In this document: positions 3,755 to 14,738 of the stretch, piece after piece
Layout of the letters: the number at the start of each line of letters is the position of its first letter
How positions within the stretch are numbered: position 1 is the stretch's first letter
Origin: a virus
Virus record (IMG/VR): IMGVR_UViG_3300031576_000154
Location: 1-39,656 of that record
Strand: one strand, 5' to 3'
Length of the DNA stretch: 39,656 nucleotides
The notes under the pieces: model-generated
Told to the model about the DNA's origin: nothing
Databases searched by the model: none
Seen by the model: the letters and a program-made list of their open reading frames with translations, nothing else
Made by a program: the position numbers and the translations under genes

Positions 3755-4357
3755 CTAGTACTTCCCAATACCCTGTACAAAGTTCTTTACTTCATAACCA
3801 GCCGCACGATACTCCTTCGCCTGTTCATCATTGACCGCAGTTGTCCACTTGGTAGACCCGTCGATGGCAGGAACCTTGAAGGACTCTGTGATAGTCACTG
3901 CAACAGGAAACTGCGTAAGAACGCCACTCAATTCACCCAACGTCTTTGGGGCATCCTTACCTGCCTTGTAGTTGGGAAACACCGCACGAGTCAGTTGGTC
4001 CCATCGGCTGAACAGCTGGTCCAGCCCCCCAGTAGCAGCGTTACGTTTATCCTCCCAGGACGCCTCAATACGCACGGTAGTAAGCCTCTTGTCCTCACCA
4101 TTGGACAACTCAGCAGTATACTGGACACCCTTCCGCCACTCAGGTTTCACTTCAAGGCTATCACTGAATACTACTGACCAATACTTACCACCCTTCTTAC
4201 TTTCCTTCTCCTCGAAGTACCGTCCCTCATACTTCGTGACCTGGCCCTTATACCGACCAGCGGGGATGGTCTTAAACCGTGCAGCCTCTGCCATTGCACT
4301 ATCGTTTGCAAACTCCTGAAAATAATCTTCAACCTGAAATGTTACTGGTGTTGGCAT
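3755..4357 (-). CDS. Probable single-stranded DNA-binding / replication accessory protein
   Basis: 200 residues. The N-terminal IPAGRYKGQVTKYEGRYF followed by a Gly-Lys-rich turn and WSVVFSD resembles the first strands of the OB-fold in phage ssDNA-binding proteins, with acidic and aromatic residues throughout. An AAGGAGG site lies 6 nt before the ATG. It sits between the polymerase gene and a Sak4-like ATPase gene, a usual place for a phage SSB. The family was not identified, and it lacks the acidic tail typical of SSBs. Confidence 0.45.
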   Translation of the reverse strand: MPTPVTFQVEDYFQEFANDSAMAEAARFKTIPAGRYKGQVTKYEGRYFEEKESKKGGKYWSVVFSDSLEVKPEWRKGVQYTAELSNGEDKRLTTVRIEASWEDKRNAATGGLDQLFSRWDQLTRAVFPNYKAGKDAPKTLGELSGVLTQFPVAVTITESFKVPAIDGSTKWTTAVNDEQAKEYRAAGYEVKNFVQGIGKY

Positions 4358-4368
4358 TACTAGCCTCC

Positions 4369-4563
4369 TTACTTGTTAAATAATAGATCATAGGCCTCGC
4401 GTACTTCACTTTCTGTCAATAGTATCTCTGTTACTGCATTCTCATCGTCCTCCTCTCGTGGGAATGTAAGTGCTACCACATAATCATCATCATTTTCAAG
4501 TGGCCGTATCACGACCTCCTTGCAATTTATATCGAGTCTACTAGTATGGTATAGAAGCGCCAT
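4369..4563 (-). CDS. Small acidic hypothetical protein
   Basis: 64 residues, with acidic runs ENDDDY and REEDDENA and a C-terminal helix LTESEVREAYDLLFNK. No family recognised. It lies between the probable SSB and the Sak4-like ATPase with 1 to 11 nt spacing, so it is translated in the replication operon. Confidence 0.65.
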   Translation of the reverse strand: MALLYHTSRLDINCKEVVIRPLENDDDYVVALTFPREEDDENAVTEILLTESEVREAYDLLFNK

Positions 4564-4564
4564 A

Positions 4565-5290
4565 TTATTTCCAACCTTTCTCTATGGCTTGTTTAATGAC
4601 TGCCCACCCACCAGGACCTTGAGGTAGCTTAATAGCCTCAGTGACCTGGCGAGGAAGACGTTGACGTACAATGATGGTATTGTTTGGAGTCATATTGAAT
4701 GTCCGTTCTATTCCTTCTGGTTTATTAATAGCCTCAATATACCCGACAAAATCGAACCAACCTGCTGATCCTGCTGCCTGTCTTCCTGGTAGGTCTGGTG
4801 TAATATATGTCTTACCTGATAGTTGTTCCACACTTTTATCTGATGGGCAGGTACACATAATTAACTTGGCAGCTCGCCGCAGAGCCATCATGGTATTATA
4901 TGATGTATGGTGTAGATCACCCCATTCATTACTCTCCTTGCGTATCTCAGGTAGCCGGTCTGACCCCACTACCTTCTTCATAATCCACCGTGAGAGTGCA
5001 TGAATAGAATCTACCCCCAGTGCATGAACCTTCTTCTCTTGAAACTCCTTGAGTGCTGCTGTGAAGTCATCGAGTGAGTCAATATGTTCACCAATATCAC
5101 CTAAGCCCATACCTCGTAGTGTCAGGTTACCATCCTCACCCACAATATTGAGGAAGCGTACTGGGCCAAAGGCTGACTCAGTTTTGAGGAAGTCACCGGT
5201 AAGGTAGGTCTTTCCTGAGGCCCTCCCACCATGTACAAGTATAGTGTAGCCATCCAATTCTGCGGTGTCTAGATTGAAGCGTTTTCTCAC
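4565..5290 (-). CDS. Sak4-like RecA-fold ATPase (AAA_24 type)
   Basis: 241 residues. Walker A is HGGRASGKTYL near residue 20 and Walker B is ALGVDSIHAL near residue 95. The order of motifs and the length fit the phage Sak4/AAA_24 family, which acts with a cognate SSB in single-strand annealing and recombination-dependent replication. A GTG start is preceded by AAGGAGAG. Neighbours on both sides are replication or nuclease genes, which supports the assignment. The exact activity, annealing or loading, cannot be read from sequence. Confidence 0.75.
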   Translation of the reverse strand: MRKRFNLDTAELDGYTILVHGGRASGKTYLTGDFLKTESAFGPVRFLNIVGEDGNLTLRGMGLGDIGEHIDSLDDFTAALKEFQEKKVHALGVDSIHALSRWIMKKVVGSDRLPEIRKESNEWGDLHHTSYNTMMALRRAAKLIMCTCPSDKSVEQLSGKTYITPDLPGRQAAGSAGWFDFVGYIEAINKPEGIERTFNMTPNNTIIVRQRLPRQVTEAIKLPQGPGGWAVIKQAIEKGWK

Positions 5291-5349
5291 ATGCTCTCCT
5301 TCCAGTGTGTAATTAGTTCAGTAAGCTTTTTTCTGCGCCGTTCTCCCAT
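5287..5349 (-). CDS. Possible 20-residue basic leader peptide
   Basis: A short frame encodes MGERRRKKLTELITHWKESM and ends overlapping the GTG start of the Sak4-like gene (ATGTGAG). Only an AAAGG at long spacing precedes it. It may couple translation into the ATPase gene or be chance. Confidence 0.25.
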   Translation of the reverse strand: MGERRRKKLTELITHWKESM

Positions 5350-5368
5350 AATAGGACTGTACCTTTTA

Positions 5369-5426
5369 TGGTGTAGAGGGGTGGAGTCGCACCACGACTG
5401 CTCTACAGGCAGCCCCCGCCCTCTAC
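5369..5426 (-). ncRNA. tRNA(Tyr)-like RNA lacking a D-arm, with encoded CCA
   Basis: Minus strand, 58 nt. A perfect 7-bp acceptor stem, GTAGAGG with CCTCTAC, is followed by discriminator A and CCA. A hairpin GGCTGC, loop CTGTAGA, GCAGTC (one G-U) looks like an anticodon arm with U33 and anticodon GTA (Tyr). GTGG, loop TGCGACT, CCAC looks like a T-arm; the loop differs from TTCGACT at one base. Only five bases replace the D-arm, and there is no variable loop. The 5' end overlaps the stop codon of the nuclease gene. It may be a tRNA mimic or decoy, a degenerate tRNA or an RNA processing signal. A working tRNA is doubtful. Confidence 0.5.
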
Positions 5427-6274
5427 GGGTGTACCTCTACTAACTTGCGTCGGTCAGGCACTTGGACATACTTAGTCTGCATAAGCCCCTCGTCCAAATG
5501 AAATATAAAGCAGGCATCATAGAATGAGCACAAACCAAACATATCCTTATGCCGAGTGGCCATTTCCAACTGTGCATTGGGGTTAGCCATCCTACCCCAC
5601 TTGGCCCTTGCACTGGCCAACCATATCTGTTGTGTCTCTGGATGTATTTCATGTGGTATCAAAACCACATGAAATCTTGGCTTGTAGACTACTAGACAGA
5701 GGTACATCCTATGGCATACCTGCTTCTTATACTCACCATAGGCCCACGGATAGTGAAGGAACTGCCAACTAGTTAGGTACTCATCTATGATACGTGATTC
5801 ATACTCGGCACTAAGATTCTGCTTATACTTCACATCTGCTACGGCTAGGACACCATCTTGGTCTAGTCCTCCTAAGTCGATGATACACCGACCATGATCA
5901 GGTAGCCTCTGTTCCACGTCTTGTATAGTCCATCCTTTAAAGGGGTCAGCAGCATGATATTTTGGCAATACTGTGGCAATTCCAGAGGCATCCACAATCT
6001 CCTCGATGGTTGACTCAAAGGACACCCCACACTTGGCATAATGCGTCAGGTCGGTATGGAATAGCATAGTTGCCTCATCCACGGCTTCCTTAGGTGTCTT
6101 CCCCTGGTGTATGGCCGCAGTGCCTACGGCAAAGGCCCTGCCCGCTAACCCACCTATCAGCTTACGATCAGCCTGCTTGGGTACTAGGTGTAGTGTGTTT
6201 TCCAAGTAATCTAACAAGGCACATCTATCCCACACATCTGTTCTGGTTGGTGGGTAGATTGGGAGTTCTGTCAT
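5423..6274 (-). CDS. PD-(D/E)XK nuclease, RecB/Cas4-like
   Basis: About 283 residues. GRCIIDLGGLDQDGVLAVADVKYK gives the catalytic D and DxK, and SWQFLHYPWAYGEYK gives the following Q-x-x-x-Y helix, the layout of RecB/Cas4-type exonucleases. Cysteines near the N-terminus (DRCALL) and C-terminus (CSFYDAC) could bind an Fe-S cluster as in AddB/Cas4 relatives, but a full four-Cys set is not certain. Probable role: DNA end processing in recombination with the Sak4-like ATPase. GAGG lies 5 nt before the ATG at 6274; a GTG two codons earlier is less likely. Confidence 0.75.
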   Translation of the reverse strand: MTELPIYPPTRTDVWDRCALLDYLENTLHLVPKQADRKLIGGLAGRAFAVGTAAIHQGKTPKEAVDEATMLFHTDLTHYAKCGVSFESTIEEIVDASGIATVLPKYHAADPFKGWTIQDVEQRLPDHGRCIIDLGGLDQDGVLAVADVKYKQNLSAEYESRIIDEYLTSWQFLHYPWAYGEYKKQVCHRMYLCLVVYKPRFHVVLIPHEIHPETQQIWLASARAKWGRMANPNAQLEMATRHKDMFGLCSFYDACFIFHLDEGLMQTKYVQVPDRRKLVEVHP

Positions 6275-6334
6275 TGTCACCTCATATTGCGCGGCTCAAT
6301 TTTATCTAACCCTCTCTACCGTTTTTCCAGCCGA

Positions 6335-6394
6335 TTTTCCGCACACCCGCCGCGAAAATTAATTATTTTTAATGTCGAAAAACTGTGCGGAAAA
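6335..6394. repeat. Inverted repeat TTTTCCGCACA / TGTGCGGAAAA
   Basis: Perfect 11-bp arms at 6335-6345 and 6384-6394 flank a 38-nt core containing AAAATTAATTATTTTTAA. The right arm belongs to the 13-mer CTGTGCGGAAAAA, which recurs at about 20077-20089. It may be a binding site for a replication or regulatory protein. Confidence 0.5.
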
Positions 6395-6536
6395 AAGCCC
6401 GAAAAAGTGGTAGTTTGCATGAGCAAACGTAATAGCACAGGTCTGCCCGTTCTACGGGCCACACAAACTCCAACGAAATCACTCATCTCTATTTATACAC
6501 CAACCACCTAATCTATCTATACTATATAGAATATAC

Positions 6537-6559
6537 GCCGCCCGCTTTAGGCGGGCGGC
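6537..6559. promoter_or_regulatory. 9-bp GC-rich hairpin upstream of the helicase-like gene
   Basis: GCCGCCCGC and GCGGGCGGC pair perfectly around loop TTTAG, 32 nt before the ATG at 6592. No T-run follows on either strand, so a classical terminator is unlikely. It may protect the 5' end of an mRNA or block polymerase. Confidence 0.45.
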
Positions 6560-6591
6560 TCCAGTATGTGCCCTACGCGAAAGGTGGTGTT

Positions 6592-7299
6592 ATGATAAGG
6601 ACTGTTATGCTCTCTGATTATGTTACACTAGAGAGACCAAGGTTGAATTGGCTCATCCCAGACATTCTACCTAAGCCTGGAATGGTGCTCCTCCTTGGTG
6701 AGCCATTTGCTGGTAAGTCATTCCTTGCCTTCCAACTTGGCCTCATGTTGGCCCAAGGTGGGTTATTCCTCCACAAGAAGTGCCACCAGTCTAGGGTTCT
6801 CTACCTACAGTTTGACCCTAGTGAACTGATATGGCGGGATCGTATCCTTTCGATCCAACATGCTGGTGTCAATCTAGGTGGGCCATTCTTCATGGTTCAT
6901 CCTGATGATAACCCACGGTCAATGCACATCCTAAGTGCTGAACACCAACGATTCCTACAGGATACACTCACTATTACTACGCCTGATGTTGTGATTGTAG
7001 ACGTACTTCGTGAGATCCATTCCTGTGATGAGCAGGATAGTACTCAAATGAAGCAAGTAGGGGATGCTCTCATGCAGCTATTCCACGGGTATACACTAGT
7101 CATACTGCATCATACCCGCAAGTTTGATAGTGAGAAGCCTATTGAGGTTATCAACTCCTCTCGTGGATCTAGTTATATGACAGGCAAGGCTGATGCTACT
7201 TGGCTCATACATCAAGGGAAATTACACATGGTGAGTAGGTTTGCCTCACCCAGCACACATACTATGGAGCGGCTAACCTGTGGGTTATGGAGGATCTAA
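6592..7299 (+). CDS. RepA/AAA_25-type hexameric helicase-like ATPase
   Basis: 235 residues. Walker A is LLGEPFAGKSFLA, Walker B is DVVIVDVLREIHSCDE, followed by LVILHHTRKF and a Ser-Arg-Gly-Ser sensor-like segment. This order is that of AAA_25/RepA-like RecA-fold ATPases, which unwind or load at replication origins. AAAGGTGG lies 4 nt before this ATG; a GTG at 6568 in frame has no such site. It is the only rightward gene in the left half and faces the structured gap, and its 3' end overlaps the RtcB gene by 4 nt tail to tail. Confidence 0.75.
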   Translation: MIRTVMLSDYVTLERPRLNWLIPDILPKPGMVLLLGEPFAGKSFLAFQLGLMLAQGGLFLHKKCHQSRVLYLQFDPSELIWRDRILSIQHAGVNLGGPFFMVHPDDNPRSMHILSAEHQRFLQDTLTITTPDVVIVDVLREIHSCDEQDSTQMKQVGDALMQLFHGYTLVILHHTRKFDSEKPIEVINSSRGSSYMTGKADATWLIHQGKLHMVSRFASPSTHTMERLTCGLWRI

Positions 7300-8483
7300 C
7301 CTTTGATACAAACACATTGTTTCAATGTAGCTACTATCTCAACTAGATCCTTCTGATTCTCCATTACTTGGTCAATATCCTTATATGACCCAGGTATCTC
7401 GTCAAGTACTCCAATATCTTTTCTACATTCTACCCCTGCTGTCTGCACGAGTATATCAGCTTCCGTAAACCTATGCTTCGCCTGTGTTCGTGACATACAC
7501 CGACCAGCTCCGTGAGAACATGAATGATATGATTCAGCATTGCCAAGTCCCTTGACGATGTAGGAGCGTGTTCCCATTGAACCTGGGATAATGCCAAAGT
7601 CAGATACTCTAGCCCTGACAGCACCTTTTCGAGTGATGATGATATTCTCCCCATAGTGATGCTCCCTACTTGCATAGTTATGGTGACAATTTACCTCAGT
7701 CATTCTCCTGATTGGAAGTCTCCAGTTACCTAATAGTACCTTTGCCATGGCCCTCATAACTTGATTCATCATTATCTCCCGATTCTTCATAGCATAGTCC
7801 TGAGCCCATTGAAGATCACGCCAGTAATCCTTGAACTCTTGGCTATCCTCAACAAGATAGGCAAGGTCAGGATCAGGGAGAGCAATCATATATCGTTTCA
7901 TCAATCCCTTGGCTTTATTGATATAGATATCAGCAATCTCCTTACCTATACCACGCGAACCACTATGGAGCATTATCCATACTCTATCATTTGTATCTAG
8001 GCATACTTCAATAAAATGATTACCACCACCAAGTGTCCCAAGTTGCCTCAGTGTCTTATTGCCCCTATCATGTAGTTCACTTGGTATATTATTGAAGTCA
8101 ACCATACCTGTCCACTCTATTGCCTCAGTAAGAGCCTCCTTATGTGTATTAAAACCTACAGGTACACCCCATTCTATTTCAGCGCGTAGTCCCGCAAGGC
8201 TATCAGGAAGCATATCGGCACTGAAGGGGGTTTCAACAGCCATCATACCACAGCCAATATCTACTCCTACACAGGCAGGCATGACCGCGCCTTTAGTGGC
8301 AACAACGCTGCCAACGGTAGCACCTTTGCCCAAGTGTACATCAGGCATAACTGCTATATGCTTGAAGACACAGGGCATATTTGCAGTATTCACTAATTGG
8401 TCTATAGCTGATGATTCTACCTCATGGATAGGTGACCATAGTTTAATAGGTACTCTTGCTTTGCTAATAACTGATAGACTCAT
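7296..8483 (-). CDS. rtcB: RNA 3'-phosphate/5'-hydroxyl ligase RtcB
   Basis: 395 residues, close to the usual bacterial length. All signature blocks are present: MPDVHLGKGATVGSV, CVGVDIGCGM (metal-binding Cys and Asp), GGGNHFIEV, HSGSRGIG, NCHHNYAS, IIPGSMGTRSY and CSHGAGR, which holds the His that becomes guanylylated. It joins RNA ends left by ribotoxins using GTP and Mn. The enzyme looks intact. It lies in the same leftward cluster as a Ro60 gene, echoing the bacterial rsr-rtcBA arrangement. Repair of host or phage tRNA cleaved by defence nucleases is a plausible role. Confidence 0.95.
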   Translation of the reverse strand: MSLSVISKARVPIKLWSPIHEVESSAIDQLVNTANMPCVFKHIAVMPDVHLGKGATVGSVVATKGAVMPACVGVDIGCGMMAVETPFSADMLPDSLAGLRAEIEWGVPVGFNTHKEALTEAIEWTGMVDFNNIPSELHDRGNKTLRQLGTLGGGNHFIEVCLDTNDRVWIMLHSGSRGIGKEIADIYINKAKGLMKRYMIALPDPDLAYLVEDSQEFKDYWRDLQWAQDYAMKNREIMMNQVMRAMAKVLLGNWRLPIRRMTEVNCHHNYASREHHYGENIIITRKGAVRARVSDFGIIPGSMGTRSYIVKGLGNAESYHSCSHGAGRCMSRTQAKHRFTEADILVQTAGVECRKDIGVLDEIPGSYKDIDQVMENQKDLVEIVATLKQCVCIKG

Positions 8484-9829: not shown

Positions 9830-10149
9830 GGCATCGCCTCGGTTACGATTGGGTCTTCCCATGGTTCTATTGTTGCTATCCATGCCGCTATTTGTGGGCG
9901 AGTCCAACCTTCATCATTTTTTAACCACAGGCATTTAGGACTATAGCCTTGTTCTTCCAACCAAGGCCATATTTCAAGTAGTAAGATATAAGGTTTATAT
10001 AGGTCATCATGCATACTACATTCCCTACCGATGGCAAATAGTGCAGCACCAATAACACATCGCGTAGGACTTTCTTTATATGCTGTAGTATTACCAGTCC
10101 CTTGTAAAGTGCCTATACTCCCTAATAATATTGCTTCACTTAGTTTCAT
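9805..10149 (-). CDS. Hypothetical protein, paralogue of the gene at 9127
   Basis: 114 residues sharing MKLSEAILLGSIG, SPTRCVIGAALFAIG, IWPW and WTRPQIAAWIATIEPWE with the gene at 9127-9534. Its start overlaps the stop of the Ro60 gene by 4 nt, so translation is coupled. Confidence 0.75.
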   Translation of the reverse strand: MKLSEAILLGSIGTLQGTGNTTAYKESPTRCVIGAALFAIGRECSMHDDLYKPYILLLEIWPWLEEQGYSPKCLWLKNDEGWTRPQIAAWIATIEPWEDPIVTEAMPCTNVCSY

Positions 10150-11519
10150 TGTCCACTCCTTTCATTATAGATAATCCAATCAATTACTCGTTCTGACAAC
10201 CCATTGATACGAGTCCACCCGCCTTTAAGCTCAAGGCCATTGGCATAGGAAGCTATATTTATTAGATAGTTATACTTGCCTTGTAAAGGAGCATTAGACA
10301 ATCGCCTTGCCTTATTATTGTCTGTATCCTGCTCATCTGTAAAGACAACAATACGGTCAAATGGGTTACGTTCTTGACTTTGTATATAGCTAAGTGCTTG
10401 GTGGCAGAATATCCCACCACCGCCCAAAGACTCATAGTTGTAATTGATTGCATCTCGTAAGGCAAAAGCATGCCGAGGTGGAACCTTTTGTGTGTTATGT
10501 ATCTGTATACTATCATCACCTGCTGTGGCATAGATAACTGGCTCTTGGCATACCTCACGTAAGAGCATAGCTAATGCACAAGCTGTATCAATACGTGTGA
10601 CCTCAGACTTACTACTAATACCACTGTGCATAGACCCACTGACATCAATGACGAATAGAGTACGCCCGGTAAGTACTGGGTGGCTTTGTAGTGCTTGAAC
10701 CATAGCATGGCCTAAAGAGTCCTCAAGATCGGGTACAGCCTTAGCTGCACTAATAAACCTGAATGGAAGTACAACAGACTTTGGGGACCACGCAGCTAAA
10801 CGATCTTTTATAAGCTTGAGTTCTACCCCAACTCGCATCATGTTCCGTAGATTCATAAGGAAGGCCATATCACCCAACTTGCCTTCATTTATAAGCCTCT
10901 CCCACGTAGTCTTCTTATCCTTACCTGTAGATAAGGCTACCTCCCACGTATCAGGACTGGTAAGTGTACCATCAACTAACTTCTTCCAAGTGGCCGCTTG
11001 TTCCTCATTGATAGGCTTTGGATGTACCATAAACATCACATCTCGAAGCATAATAGTAGCATCTCTATTCCACTTTGCAAGGTTATATTCATTAAACTTA
11101 GGAAATGCCCTTGCTAGCCCCTTCTTGAGCTGTGCAGCTACCGGCTTGCGTCCATCTTTCCAATAGAGTGATAATAGCTCAGCCATTTCATCAGGACGTT
11201 GTATAACAGTGGCAATGGCAGTTTGAGCCAAGGGTGATTTTAACTTGACAAGTTGAAGTAGCAAGAATAGTGGTACATGGCGCAGCTTAAACTCAGTCCG
11301 TGCTTCTTGTGCGAGAGCTACTATTACTTCTGGTTTTACTTTAGTACAGAGATCAGTTATTCTAGTAGCTATACTATTTCCCTCCTCATAGAAGGTGTCT
11401 TCCCACAATAGACAGGTGGCAACGGTCTTGCGTAGCTCTGCCTCTGCTGTCTGCCGTACTGCATGACCACCACCATGTGTAACAACTGGCTCTGGCTTTA
11501 CTATTTTATTAGTCTTCAA
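10146..11519 (-). CDS. Ro60-like TROVE-domain RNA-binding protein (Rsr)
   Basis: 457 residues. The N-terminal helical region (TVATCLLWEDTFYEEGNSIA, then LRHVPLFLLLQLV and LRDVMFMVHPKP) is TROVE-like, and the C-terminal part is a von Willebrand A domain with an intact MIDAS (DVSGSMHSG) and FTDEQDTDN. Ro60 proteins bind Y RNAs and misfolded RNAs through a HEAT-repeat ring and in bacteria act with nucleases or RtcB. AAGGAGG lies 8 nt before a TTG at 11519; upstream codons overlap an RNA hairpin and are unlikely to be translated. The structured RNA upstream and RtcB downstream fit RNA surveillance or repair. Confidence 0.9.
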   Translation of the reverse strand: MKTNKIVKPEPVVTHGGGHAVRQTAEAELRKTVATCLLWEDTFYEEGNSIATRITDLCTKVKPEVIVALAQEARTEFKLRHVPLFLLLQLVKLKSPLAQTAIATVIQRPDEMAELLSLYWKDGRKPVAAQLKKGLARAFPKFNEYNLAKWNRDATIMLRDVMFMVHPKPINEEQAATWKKLVDGTLTSPDTWEVALSTGKDKKTTWERLINEGKLGDMAFLMNLRNMMRVGVELKLIKDRLAAWSPKSVVLPFRFISAAKAVPDLEDSLGHAMVQALQSHPVLTGRTLFVIDVSGSMHSGISSKSEVTRIDTACALAMLLREVCQEPVIYATAGDDSIQIHNTQKVPPRHAFALRDAINYNYESLGGGGIFCHQALSYIQSQERNPFDRIVVFTDEQDTDNNKARRLSNAPLQGKYNYLINIASYANGLELKGGWTRINGLSERVIDWIIYNERSGQ

Positions 11520-11547
11520 GGGGTTTACCTCCTTTATTAATGGTATA

Positions 11548-11613
11548 GGAGACAGGAACAAGCGACTACAGTGTTTTCAATCCAGAAGTAACTGTAGCCA
11601 ACACCATGTCTCC
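11548..11613 (-). ncRNA. Structured RNA domain 3, Y-RNA-like candidate
   Basis: Minus strand: outer stem GGAGACA/TGTCTCC (7 bp); internal loop TGGTGTT against GCTTGTTCC; inner stem GGCTACAG/CTGTAGTC (8 bp with one G-U); 20-nt apical loop. It ends 29 nt before the Ro60 start. The wobble pair favours transcription from this strand. Architecture is shared with the two domains to its right. Confidence 0.6.
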
Positions 11614-11765: not shown

Positions 11766-12086
11766 TCAGCCCTTGAATATGAATTGTACACCCATCCTTT
11801 CGCCCACCTTTTTAAGTTCCTTTTCACGTGTTACATTATCTATGTCAGGTTGGTCATTAACAACATAAGCCTGACTCAACGCATCCTCATGAGCATCCAC
11901 AAAGTTGTATGCGCGATCACTACTAACACTACATAAAGTAGTTACATTACGAATATTTTTAGGCTTGAACCTAAGCTCCCTTGCAAGGAATCCAATACAA
12001 CACATCTTACCATTCATTAGGAGTAATCGAGAGCCTTCCTGCTGCCCACGAAACCATTTCTTCCTATTTACCTGTACTTTAATCAT
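11766..12086 (-). CDS. Small phage protein with KMCCIGF motif, unknown function
   Basis: 106 residues from the ATG at 12086, which follows GGGAGGA. RKKWFRGQQEGSRLLLMNGK then MCCIGFLARELRF match a common phage family pattern (K-W-x-R-G ... G-x-M-C-C-x-G-F), and the C-terminus VNDQPDIDNVTREKELKK fits it too. Function unknown. It is the last gene of the E2-E1-JAMM operon before the RNA array. Confidence 0.7.
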   Translation of the reverse strand: MIKVQVNRKKWFRGQQEGSRLLLMNGKMCCIGFLARELRFKPKNIRNVTTLCSVSSDRAYNFVDAHEDALSQAYVVNDQPDIDNVTREKELKKVGERMGVQFIFKG

Positions 12087-12087
12087 A

Positions 12088-12906
12088 TTAGTAATATCCT
12101 CCCTCACTCCAATGTCGTATAGCGTCATCATCACTCCAGACGTTGTGCTTACCGCGTTTCTTCTCCCATGCCATTCTATTATCTACTACAATAAGGCCAT
12201 TCTCACTATACCTAGAACCACGAGTATTTGTCTGTACCTCATTAAGAAACTCCTTACCATCACGACCAAAGATGGTAGTGGCTGGTTCAGTCCTAGTAAT
12301 ACCACACGGAGTTGTACAGTCATGTGAAAAGCCAACTCGTGTCTTTGTAGTACGGGGGCATAATCGTAAGCTTATTTGGTCAGATGGTGCACTAAACCCT
12401 GAGACTAATACTTCAGGCCATTCCATTATAGTTGGTGTTGGAATGAGCCGAAATGGTATGATGCCTATACTTCCACAAGGTAATGCAGCTCGGCCCTCAG
12501 CCTTATAACTAAACCCCAGAAGCTGCTCTATGGTAGGACTATCATGATGAGTCTGAGCAACTACTAATGACATTGGAAACCGGGTGTTCAGTGTCTTATC
12601 ATCTGTCACACTAAAGAATGCTCTCATACTATGGTGTGAATGTACAACACCTACAACATCTGGTGTCAATGGTTCCTGTCTTACTAAGGCGCAGGTTGAG
12701 TGGCTACATTCTTGTAATGGGACACGAAGAGAGTTGACCTGTATATCCAATCCATTCTCACTTCGAGTCCCAACTAACAGAGCAATCCACTCTATATTAT
12801 CATATACTGCACCTGCGAGTGTACTAAGTATAGTATGTGATATTTTAATTGTGCCTAACCCACTTATGGTATACGGGCATTGTTCGACAATTGGCACTGT
12901 AATCAT
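12088..12906 (-). CDS. JAMM/MPN metalloprotease (JAB family)
   Basis: 272 residues. VVGVVHSHHSMRAFFSVTDD contains the JAMM signature H-x-H-x10-D, and E in NIEWIALLVG near residue 40 can supply the upstream Glu. Such zinc enzymes cut isopeptide bonds of ubiquitin-like tags or mature their C-termini. The C-terminal half has no recognised domain and ends in an aromatic, charged tail. It directly follows an E1-like and an E2-like gene, the usual company of prokaryotic JAB proteases in ubiquitin-like operons. Confidence 0.8.
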   Translation of the reverse strand: MITVPIVEQCPYTISGLGTIKISHTILSTLAGAVYDNIEWIALLVGTRSENGLDIQVNSLRVPLQECSHSTCALVRQEPLTPDVVGVVHSHHSMRAFFSVTDDKTLNTRFPMSLVVAQTHHDSPTIEQLLGFSYKAEGRAALPCGSIGIIPFRLIPTPTIMEWPEVLVSGFSAPSDQISLRLCPRTTKTRVGFSHDCTTPCGITRTEPATTIFGRDGKEFLNEVQTNTRGSRYSENGLIVVDNRMAWEKKRGKHNVWSDDDAIRHWSEGGYY

Positions 12907-13464
12907 TTATTTCATTGCCTCCTCAATTGATAGTGATGTGGTAAAGTGGGGAACTGGATTATCAAGATATCGCTTGACTGCTTCTGCTCCTATTCCACCG
13001 GCTGCAAAGGACAGTGATAGTGAAGGGACTGCTGTATACCCACCAGCCATAGGCGCTAGCAATGGTAAGCCGGTTGAGACCACAACTGTTGATCCACGGC
13101 CATCATAACTTACTCGTATAATATGTACCCCTTTATTCTTTACGATGGTCCATATACGCCTACGCTTTTCAAGTGGCATATCAGTACAGTCAACAACAGT
13201 GTCACCAGCGTTGAGGTGTAAGAGCCCACTGAACTTTCGGTCTACAAATGAGGGCAGTATTGCATCGGCAAAGACCATACTCAAGAAGCCCCGCAGTAAA
13301 TCAGCCTTCTTAGTAGTTGGTGGAGCCCACGGTAGACGTGCGGCTCCAGCCCCCCCTGTTAAGGTATCATCATCCCAACATTGCAGTAGATTAGGGGGGA
13401 CTACCCGCGATAACCCAACTGTTAGCCAAAACCCGACACCACCAAGCCCAACAATATGTATCAT
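12907..13464 (-). CDS. E1/ThiF-like adenylyltransferase
   Basis: 185 residues. MIHIVGLGGVGFWLTVGLSR is the ATP-binding Rossmann motif, CWDDDTL with the later Arg of AARLPW matches the D-x-D...N..R block, and VVDCTDMPLEKRRRI matches the DxTD...R block of ThiF/MoeB/E1 enzymes. It would adenylate the C-terminal glycine of a ubiquitin-like protein. It is shorter than ThiF (about 250 residues) and lacks the C-x-x-C zinc pairs. Its ATG overlaps the stop of the E2-like gene (ATGA), so the two are translationally coupled. Confidence 0.8.
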   Translation of the reverse strand: MIHIVGLGGVGFWLTVGLSRVVPPNLLQCWDDDTLTGGAGAARLPWAPPTTKKADLLRGFLSMVFADAILPSFVDRKFSGLLHLNAGDTVVDCTDMPLEKRRRIWTIVKNKGVHIIRVSYDGRGSTVVVSTGLPLLAPMAGGYTAVPSLSLSFAAGGIGAEAVKRYLDNPVPHFTTSLSIEEAMK

Positions 13465-13934
13465 AGTTCATCATACTCCTTTACTAGCTCTATCTGCCCC
13501 CAACTCATGAGCTTATTCCTTGCTGGGGTACAATGATGGCCCCAATATATATGAAGCCATCGTGGAATAAACTTTGCCCCCATTGGGGCATCTAGAATAT
13601 TTGGTGTACTTGCAAGGAGAGCGACACCATCGGTATTTTTACCTAAGCATAGATATCCACCACCATTATTATGTGGATGATTAGGGAATACTAATTCCAC
13701 CTTTGTCTTTGCCAAGTCAAGTATCCCAAGTAATCGGTAGTTATTAGGACCATCTAAAAACCATATTGCGTTTGAACGAACAGGCTTTAGACAAAATGGG
13801 CATTTTGACTCAGGCATGACAACTGGAGTTGCAGCCCATTCCCAAGTAGGAGGGGCACTATTTTTTATCATACTAATACTTGCCAAAACAGTATTTAGCT
13901 GCCGTGACAGGGCTAGAAGTCCATAGTTATCCAT
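13461..13934 (-). CDS. E2-like (ubiquitin-conjugating-type) protein
   Basis: 157 residues. NHPHNNGGGYLCLG is the E2 pattern HPN/HPH...G-x-[IL]-C-L, placing a candidate thioester Cys near residue 110, and is followed by WLHIYWGHHC. An N-terminal CPFC may be half of a zinc site. Its stop overlaps the E1-like gene and its start overlaps the gene before by 22 nt. The E2-E1-JAMM order strongly supports the call. In sequence alone the E2 fold is only suggested by this one motif block. Confidence 0.65.
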   Translation of the reverse strand: MDNYGLLALSRQLNTVLASISMIKNSAPPTWEWAATPVVMPESKCPFCLKPVRSNAIWFLDGPNNYRLLGILDLAKTKVELVFPNHPHNNGGGYLCLGKNTDGVALLASTPNILDAPMGAKFIPRWLHIYWGHHCTPARNKLMSWGQIELVKEYDEL

Positions 13935-14419
13935 TTATCATTTACCTCCACTGGGGCACCACTTGGTAGGAGCCATCTTCCATTTAGTTCTGCCGCAATT
14001 TGGTAGTTATCTTGGTCAATAGCAAGACGGGAAGGCGTAGTATAGGATCTCACAACATTGCTATAGGTACCCATTGCTTCCTCTTTAAGAAGTCCTACTA
14101 AGCGTGTTGTGATCTTCGTAACAAGGGTAGCATCATTTGTTGCCCCTGTGTAACTTGCTAGGGCAGCAAGGATCGCAAGCTTTGTAAGTGGGTGTACTGT
14201 ACAGTCACCTGCTAGACGTGGAAGATAGATACTCCCTTCCGCCACTTGCCAGCTCCCGTATATGAGTTGGTGGGGTTGCTCACTAACATATATATATGCT
14301 CGTATCACAGCTGGTAAACCTGTCCCACACATTCGCGGTTCATCAAGAAGCCTATGTAACCATGGTGTTGCAGCAGCAGCGACCGCTGTCGGATTAGGGG
14401 GTACTGAACTAATATACAT
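13913..14419 (-). CDS. Unknown protein of the ubiquitin-like cassette
   Basis: 168 residues from the ATG at 14419, which has GGAGG 5 nt upstream. Features are an Ala-rich helix near the N-terminus, MCGTGLPAVIRAYIYVSEQ, a hydrophobic helix LAILAALASYTG and a C-terminal strand-rich part ending VNDKWITMDF. No family recognised. Its overlap with the E2-like gene implies a function in the same pathway, perhaps as adaptor or substrate-binding subunit. Confidence 0.6.
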   Translation of the reverse strand: MYISSVPPNPTAVAAAATPWLHRLLDEPRMCGTGLPAVIRAYIYVSEQPHQLIYGSWQVAEGSIYLPRLAGDCTVHPLTKLAILAALASYTGATNDATLVTKITTRLVGLLKEEAMGTYSNVVRSYTTPSRLAIDQDNYQIAAELNGRWLLPSGAPVEVNDKWITMDF

Positions 14420-14493
14420 TAGAGCCTCCATTATGTTATGGATTCTTTCTACTATCAATAATAATTAATAGTAGGAAGAGTCTATAAATACAA

Positions 14494-14516
14494 GGGGCGG
14501 GCACTAGGCCCGCCCC
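14494..14516 (-). terminator. GC-rich hairpin, possible terminator or attenuator
   Basis: GGGGCGGGC and GCCCGCCCC form a perfect 9-bp stem around a 5-nt loop. On the minus strand TTGTATTTAT follows, a weak T-rich tail. It lies between the 64-residue gene and the rest of the E2-E1-JAMM operon, so partial termination could set their ratio. Confidence 0.45.
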
Positions 14517-14543
14517 CACCATGGTAGGGGTTACTAGATGAAT

Positions 14544-14738
14544 CTAGTCGCCACCTTGAGCAGATTGGACCGGCCTGACTGTGGGCTCTGCACCCGGAGT
14601 TACAGTTTGTCTTAAGGCTGGGTGGTCATCACTATGGATGGTCAGTTTGCGGCCATCATTAAACGTGATTTCTACCCCTGCCGCCTCTTGAATACCACTT
14701 TTACACAATGTATCCTTGAGGAATTCTTCTAGCGTCAT
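14544..14738 (-). CDS. Small protein ending Gly-Gly-Asp; candidate ubiquitin-like modifier
   Basis: 64 residues. The core GVEITFNDGRKLTIHSDD could form a beta-hairpin, after an N-terminal helix MTLEEFLKDTL. The C-terminus SAQGGD ends in a di-glycine plus one residue, as in precursors of ubiquitin-like modifiers that a JAMM protease would trim. It lies just upstream of the E2-E1-JAMM genes. It is shorter than typical beta-grasp modifiers (about 75-95) and the fold is unproven. The stop codon sits in a 6-bp hairpin (ACTAGA/TCTAGT). Confidence 0.5.
   Translation of the reverse strand: MTLEEFLKDTLCKSGIQEAAGVEITFNDGRKLTIHSDDHPALRQTVTPGAEPTVRPVQSAQGGD

What the first reader, a model, noticed from the sequence alone, without database searches (positions are those of the whole stretch)
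12088..14738. Phage ubiquitin-like conjugation cassette: candidate modifier, unknown, E2, E1, JAMM
E2-like HPH...CLG, ThiF/E1-like and JAMM genes overlap or abut in one operon, headed by a small protein ending in GGD and an unknown 168-residue protein. Prokaryotic operons of this make-up are known (for example PRTRC and bacterial Bil/Bub systems, the latter antiphage). Their presence in a phage suggests the phage tags host or its own proteins, or counters host tagging.
Basis: partly seen in the sequence, partly recalled or inferred. Interest (0 to 1): 0.85.

Follow-up and report, generated by a model that had tools for sequence, protein, structure and literature searches.

The report
Phage-borne ubiquitin-like protein-tagging operon
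A phage known only from metagenomic sequence carries a compact set of genes that looks able to make, attach and remove a small ubiquitin-like protein tag, and many other uncultured phages carry a version of it, so this chemistry is not only a bacterial defence against phages.

Summary
The five minus-strand genes are real and stay together in related phage contigs (all five found in L133 and L134; the same five slots in L135 and L136). E1 and JAMM are secure: profiles of them with their relatives match ThiF/Uba1/Cap2/BubCD (E to 3e-18) and AMSH-type deubiquitinases (E 3e-4), with catalytic residues invariant. The E2 call rests on an invariant HPH...C-x-G site and operon position; a middling structure model neither confirmed nor refuted it. 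The 64-residue first protein is a good modifier candidate: its tail VQSA[QE]GG is conserved up to the glycines and variable beyond them (D, M, LR), as expected of a trimmed precursor. It lacks about 40 N-terminal residues (apparent first beta hairpin) present in L135/L136; its fold could not be modelled. A JAMM scan found 37 further viral contigs (some near-identical) with Ubl-E2-E1-JAMM, several in T4-type phages, mostly just behind a possible sliding-clamp gene. New variant of a known kind.

The parts
14544..14738 (-). candidate ubiquitin-like modifier, 64 aa, precursor ending ...RPVQSAQGG|D
   Evidence: orthologues in L133, L134 (74% identical) and a longer relative in L135 (phmmer 2.8e-4); tail conserved to GG then variable in sequence and length; strong GGGAGGGGGTGA ribosome site before ATG
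14493..14517 (-). terminator/attenuator-like stem-loop directly after the modifier gene (10 bp, 9 G-C)
   Evidence: stem-loops of different sequence at the same place in L133 and L134, z -3.1, -3.1, -6.5
13913..14419 (-). protein of unknown function, 168 aa, always between modifier and E2 in this clade
   Evidence: L133/L134 phmmer 8e-40/7e-31; position-matched, weakly similar proteins in L135/L136 with shared W...G..V.V..W end; no family match
13461..13934 (-). E2-like protein, 157 aa; putative active-site C96 in HPH-x7-C-L-G; CPxC...H.C zinc-knuckle-like residues
   Evidence: 16 invariant columns in five relatives, incl. H86 P87 H88 G92 C96 G98 and C45 C48 H133 C135
12907..13464 (-). E1-like (ThiF/MoeB type) adenylating enzyme, 185 aa, no separate catalytic-cysteine domain
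   Evidence: profile of window protein plus 5 relatives hits ThiF 3.4e-18, Uba1 1.9e-15, Cap2 9e-14, BubCD 9e-9; G6 G8 G9 G11 D31 D33 R43 K53 D92 D95 invariant
12088..12906 (-). JAMM/JAB metallopeptidase, 272 aa
   Evidence: Prok-JAB 1.1e-6; profile hits AMSH-like sst2 2.9e-4; E39 H89 H91 S99 D102 invariant
11766..12134 (-). 122-aa protein overlapping the JAMM 3' end; kept next to the cassette in L133 and L134, function unknown
   Evidence: phmmer 3e-24 and 2e-22
10146..11561 (-). TROVE (Ro60-like) RNA-binding protein next downstream; possible functional partner, not shown
   Evidence: PF05731 3.8e-20; a TROVE gene also follows the JAMM gene in L148, L158, L164, L173, but is absent from L134's record

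Best explanation
A phage-encoded, reversible ubiquitin-like conjugation system. Proposed cycle: the JAMM peptidase trims the modifier after its C-terminal Gly-Gly (inferred from the tail pattern); the E1-like enzyme adenylates that glycine with ATP (inferred from homology and conserved nucleotide-site residues); since it has no catalytic-cysteine domain, the modifier passes from the adenylate to Cys96 of the E2-like protein (inferred); the E2, perhaps with the unknown 168-aa protein, attaches it to target proteins (inferred, targets unknown); JAMM also removes it. A stem-loop after the modifier gene would let the modifier be made in excess over the enzymes (inferred). Shown here: gene order, conservation, E1 and JAMM homology, active-site invariance, precursor-like tail. 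Most likely use: modifying phage or host proteins during infection.
For: Same cassette in four related phage contigs; all have P22-type portal matches, two over the cut-off. E1 and JAMM homology. Tail conserved to GG, variable after. 37 further viral contigs with the order Ubl-E2-E1-JAMM, whose Ubl profile matches SUMO (4bkg, 2.7e-5). Of 120 viral stretches fetched by a JAMM motif alone, 102 have an E1-like gene within 3 kb on the same strand, none on the other.
Against: E2 fold not confirmed: model pLDDT 68.6, no E2 among Foldseek or VIA matches; no Pfam E2 match. Modifier fold unknown: pLDDT 42.9, no significant profile link to the other cassettes' Ubls. Window-clade and T4-type E2s are not linked significantly. 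The E1 lacks the Asn of the usual N-x-x-R motif. No activity data of any kind.
Confidence: 0.7

Rival explanations
1. Sulfur-carrier pathway: the small protein is thiocarboxylated by the E1 like ThiS/MoaD and gives sulfur to a cofactor, tRNA or other acceptor; JAMM trims the precursor; the 157-aa protein is a metal-binding accessory, not an E2.
For: E1 is nearest to ThiF/MoeB and is minimal in size; JAMM-ThiS-E1 sulfur operons exist (PMC1779556); E2 fold unproven.
Against: No sulfurtransferase, rhodanese or biosynthetic gene was recognised beside the cassette; the HPH...C site is invariant.
Confidence: 0.12
2. Counter-defence: the phage uses JAMM, or the whole set as a decoy, to strip or divert ubiquitin-like tags of host systems such as Bil, Bub or CBASS.
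For: Those systems act against phages (PMC10097602; Bil/Bub recalled and cited in PMC11354881).
Against: A pure stripper would not need a modifier, E1 and E2, yet all are kept in L133 and L134. No host system is known for this phage.
Confidence: 0.1
3. A defence system carried by the phage against competing phages (superinfection exclusion), tagging parts of an incoming phage as Bil does.
For: Gene content like Bil/Bub; phages are known to carry defence genes (own knowledge).
Against: No PADLOC match for any window protein. In T4-type relatives the cassette lies in what looks like the replication region, not a defence island (inferred).
Confidence: 0.15

Closest known systems
Ubl/JAB/E1/E2 operons of bacteria, class 6d (Iyer et al. 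2006, PMC1779556), which I equate with PRTRC from memory
   Same: [quoted passage not shown] weak PRTRC_A similarity of JAMM
   Different: 6d E2s lack the upstream histidine, which is HPH here; scores far below PRTRC cut-offs; the extra 6d protein is alpha-helical, relation to the 168-aa protein not shown; phage genome
BilABCD and Bub (type II BIL) antiphage systems
   Same: modifier, E2, E1 and JAB DUB; modifier with residues beyond the terminal glycine trimmed by the DUB in Bil (PMC11354881); E1 profile reaches BubCD
   Different: BilA has two Ub-like domains, the window protein has 64 residues; bacterial systems act against phages, this is in a phage; extra 168-aa gene; Bil gene order differs (own knowledge)
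CBASS Cap2/Cap3
   Same: E1/E2 chemistry and JAB peptidase; E1 profile hits Cap2 (9e-14)
   Different: Cap2 fuses E1 and E2 and uses the CD-NTase itself as the conjugated protein (PMC10097602, PMC10449767); no CD-NTase or fusion recognised here
Lambda/T1 tail-assembly TAPI/TAPK
   Same: phage Ub-like protein with JAB peptidase (PMC1779556)
   Different: no E1 or E2, and in tail genes; here the cassette is on the opposite strand to the structural genes

Membership tests
E1-like / ThiF superfamily | Rossmann GxGGxG with ATP-site Asp, Arg, Lys, Asp | tested here: met
   the Asn of N-x-x-R is absent
JAMM/JAB peptidase | Glu, HxH, Ser, Asp zinc-site motif | tested here: met
E2 (UBC-like) | His-Pro-x motif shortly before a catalytic Cys | tested here: met
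   H86 P87 H88 ... C96 invariant
E2 (UBC-like) | UBC fold | tested here: inconclusive
   model pLDDT 68.6, helix-strand order compatible, no E2 among matches
Ubiquitin-like modifier | C-terminal glycine, exposed by trimming | tested here: met
   GG in window, L133, L134; AG in L135, L136; variable residues after; trimming itself not tested
Ubiquitin-like modifier | beta-grasp fold | tested here: inconclusive
   model of L135 relative pLDDT 42.9; no significant profile link
PRTRC system | PRTRC_A and PRTRC_ThiF models above cut-off | tested here: not met
   PRTRC_A 22.8 of 101.8 bits; no ThiF model match for the window E1
BilABCD | modifier with two Ub-like domains | tested here: not met
   64-aa protein, cannot be extended in L133/L134
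Known defence systems in PADLOC 2.0 | model match | tested here: not met
   none for the five proteins

The most novel reading that the evidence does not exclude
The window clade uses a cut-down ubiquitin-like modifier of about 62 residues that has lost the first beta hairpin yet is still activated by E1/E2 and released by JAMM, and in T4-type relatives the system modifies the replication clamp encoded next to it, a phage parallel to PCNA modification.
Probability: 0.1. Interest if true: 0.92.

Novelty: new variant of a known kind. Interest (0 to 1): 0.75.

Why it matters
Bacterial ubiquitin-like conjugation is mostly discussed as antiphage defence. Here phages of at least two portal types carry modifier, E2-like, E1 and JAMM genes themselves, and the modifier and T4-type E2 families have no Pfam or PHROG match. 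If active, this would be protein tagging run by a phage during infection, open to direct test, and would widen the picture of where ubiquitin-like systems evolved. No description of such a phage cassette was found in the open papers searched; subscription papers and preprints were not covered.

Tried and rejected
Single-protein scans of viral contigs with E1 or E2, and of GenBank phages with E2, found no relatives; the E1's one GenBank phage hit was weak and lies under a tape measure gene (E 0.4). TROVE relatives L003-L012 hold no cassette. An E1-profile scan added no new member of the window clade. Foldseek and VIA gave no E2 for the E2 model. hhalign between the window-clade E2 core and other HPH...CLG proteins gave 1.9e-6, but both sets were cut around the same motif, so I do not count it. 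Pup-like reading (64 aa ending GG-x): rejected, since relatives end GGM and GGLR and the partners are E1/E2/JAMM. No Y RNA or other Rfam family near the TROVE genes (one sub-threshold hit). Other E1 hits in the phage collection (MoeB, ThiF) carry bacterial-looking names and were not pursued.

Full report
What is there. The window is an IMG/VR virus record of 39,656 bases with terminase, P22-type portal (8.6e-80) and head genes, so a tailed phage. On the opposite strand to those genes lie the five ORFs reported, 12088-14738. The JAMM protein passes the Prok-JAB cut-off; the others have no convincing single-sequence family match. The next genes downstream are a 122-aa protein and a TROVE protein; an RtcB ligase follows further on.

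Relatives. Single-sequence scans failed. Dulem virus 41 gave a first lead: a JAMM-motif protein beside an annotated ThiF protein and a protein with H-x-H...C-L-G. A DNA pattern for HSH[HN]xMxxFFSxxD was then scanned in viral contigs and stopped at 120 stretches; 102 of these have an E1-like gene within 3 kb on the same strand and none on the other strand. A JAMM alignment gave 44 viral loci, L133-L176. L133 and L134 hold homologues of all five window proteins; L135 and L136 hold E2, E1 and JAMM homologues, and proteins in the modifier and unknown slots that align with the window's. Records of all four have P22-type portal matches, over the cut-off in two. The E1 of this clade found no further members.

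E1 and JAMM. A profile of the window E1 and five relatives hits ThiF at 3.4e-18, yeast Uba1 at 1.9e-15, Cap2 at 9e-14 and BubCD at 9e-9. In the window clade the glycine motif, D31, D33, R43, K53, D92 and D95 are invariant, while the Asn of N-x-x-R is missing and no cysteine is invariant; a separate E1 thioester is therefore unlikely (inference). The JAMM profile hits AMSH-like sst2 at 2.9e-4, and E39, H89, H91, S99 and D102 are invariant.

E2-like protein. Sixteen columns are invariant in five relatives, including HPH, the following C-x-G and C45, C48, H133, C135. In L135 and L136 this protein has a long C-terminal tail with many CxxC pairs. AlphaFold on five sequences gave pLDDT 68.6 and pTM 0.61, with a helix, strands, the active-site loop, then helices, an order compatible with UBC; but the loop is low in confidence, and neither Foldseek nor the VIA second look listed an E2. 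The E2 label thus rests on motif, invariance and context.

Modifier candidate. Tails: window RPVQSAQGG-D, L133 RPVQSAQGG-M, L134 KAVQSAEGG-LR, L135 RPVHQAQAG-I, L136 TPVYQAKAG-F. Conservation stops at the glycine, the pattern of a trimmed precursor (inference). The window, L133 and L134 forms begin where the apparent helix begins; in L133 and L134 only five codons without a start separate the preceding stop from the ATG, so the missing N-terminal part is really missing. The L135 form was modelled with pLDDT 42.9 only; its strand-strand-helix-strand order is compatible with a beta-grasp but not evidence. A stem-loop follows the modifier gene in window, L133 and L134, with different sequences at the same place.

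The wider group. In 37 viral contigs among L137-L176 (some near-identical, one with a split E2) the order is Ubl, E2, E1, JAMM (the profiles were built from these loci, so membership is by position first). Their Ubl profile matches SUMO (4bkg 2.7e-5); their E2-like proteins share F-x-HYH...C with C invariant and match nothing in the PDB. Five of 22 records tested have a T4-type portal over the cut-off. In 32 of the 37 a 245-aa protein is encoded upstream of the Ubl; its best PDB matches are archaeal sliding clamps but weak (0.44), so 'clamp' is a lead only.

TROVE. Seven of 44 cassette records have a TROVE match; in four related loci it directly follows JAMM. With the window that is two independent cases (window E1 26% identical to theirs); no control frequency was measured, so the link is suggestive.

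How it likely works: see best explanation. Shown: genes, order, conservation, homology of E1 and JAMM. Inferred: every catalytic step, the E2 role, trimming, and use in infection.

Comparison. It works like the free-standing Ubl/E2/E1/JAB operons described by Iyer et al. (PMC1779556) and like Bil/Bub, but fails PRTRC model cut-offs and the two-domain modifier feature of Bil. A jumbo-phage survey that covers TROVE and RtcB does not mention JAB, ThiF or Ub-like proteins (PMC7824862).

Noticed in passing
window 10146-11561 and 7296-8483; L148, L158, L164, L173 downstream of JAMM: TROVE (Ro60-like) gene next to the cassette, with an RtcB RNA ligase nearby in the window; TROVE also follows JAMM in four T4-group loci.
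   Followed up: partly
L137-L177, about 240 codons upstream of the Ubl gene: A conserved 245-aa protein, possibly a sliding clamp, lies directly upstream of the Ubl in 32 of 37 cassette contigs.
   Followed up: partly
L135 4530-5366; L136 4448-5413: E2-like proteins with a C-terminal tail of many CxxC pairs, perhaps a zinc-binding E3-like part; absent in the window protein.
   Followed up: no
L142 and L143 3187-4932: Two E2-like genes in tandem in one cassette.
   Followed up: no
L164 5077-5745: A reverse-strand ORF that reads like a GIY-YIG homing endonuclease sits between E1 and JAMM; not checked against a family library.
   Followed up: no
L002 (Dulem virus 41) 4267-7697: A GenBank phage with a related but rearranged set: JAMM, ThiF and a larger H-x-H...C-L-G protein.
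   Followed up: partly
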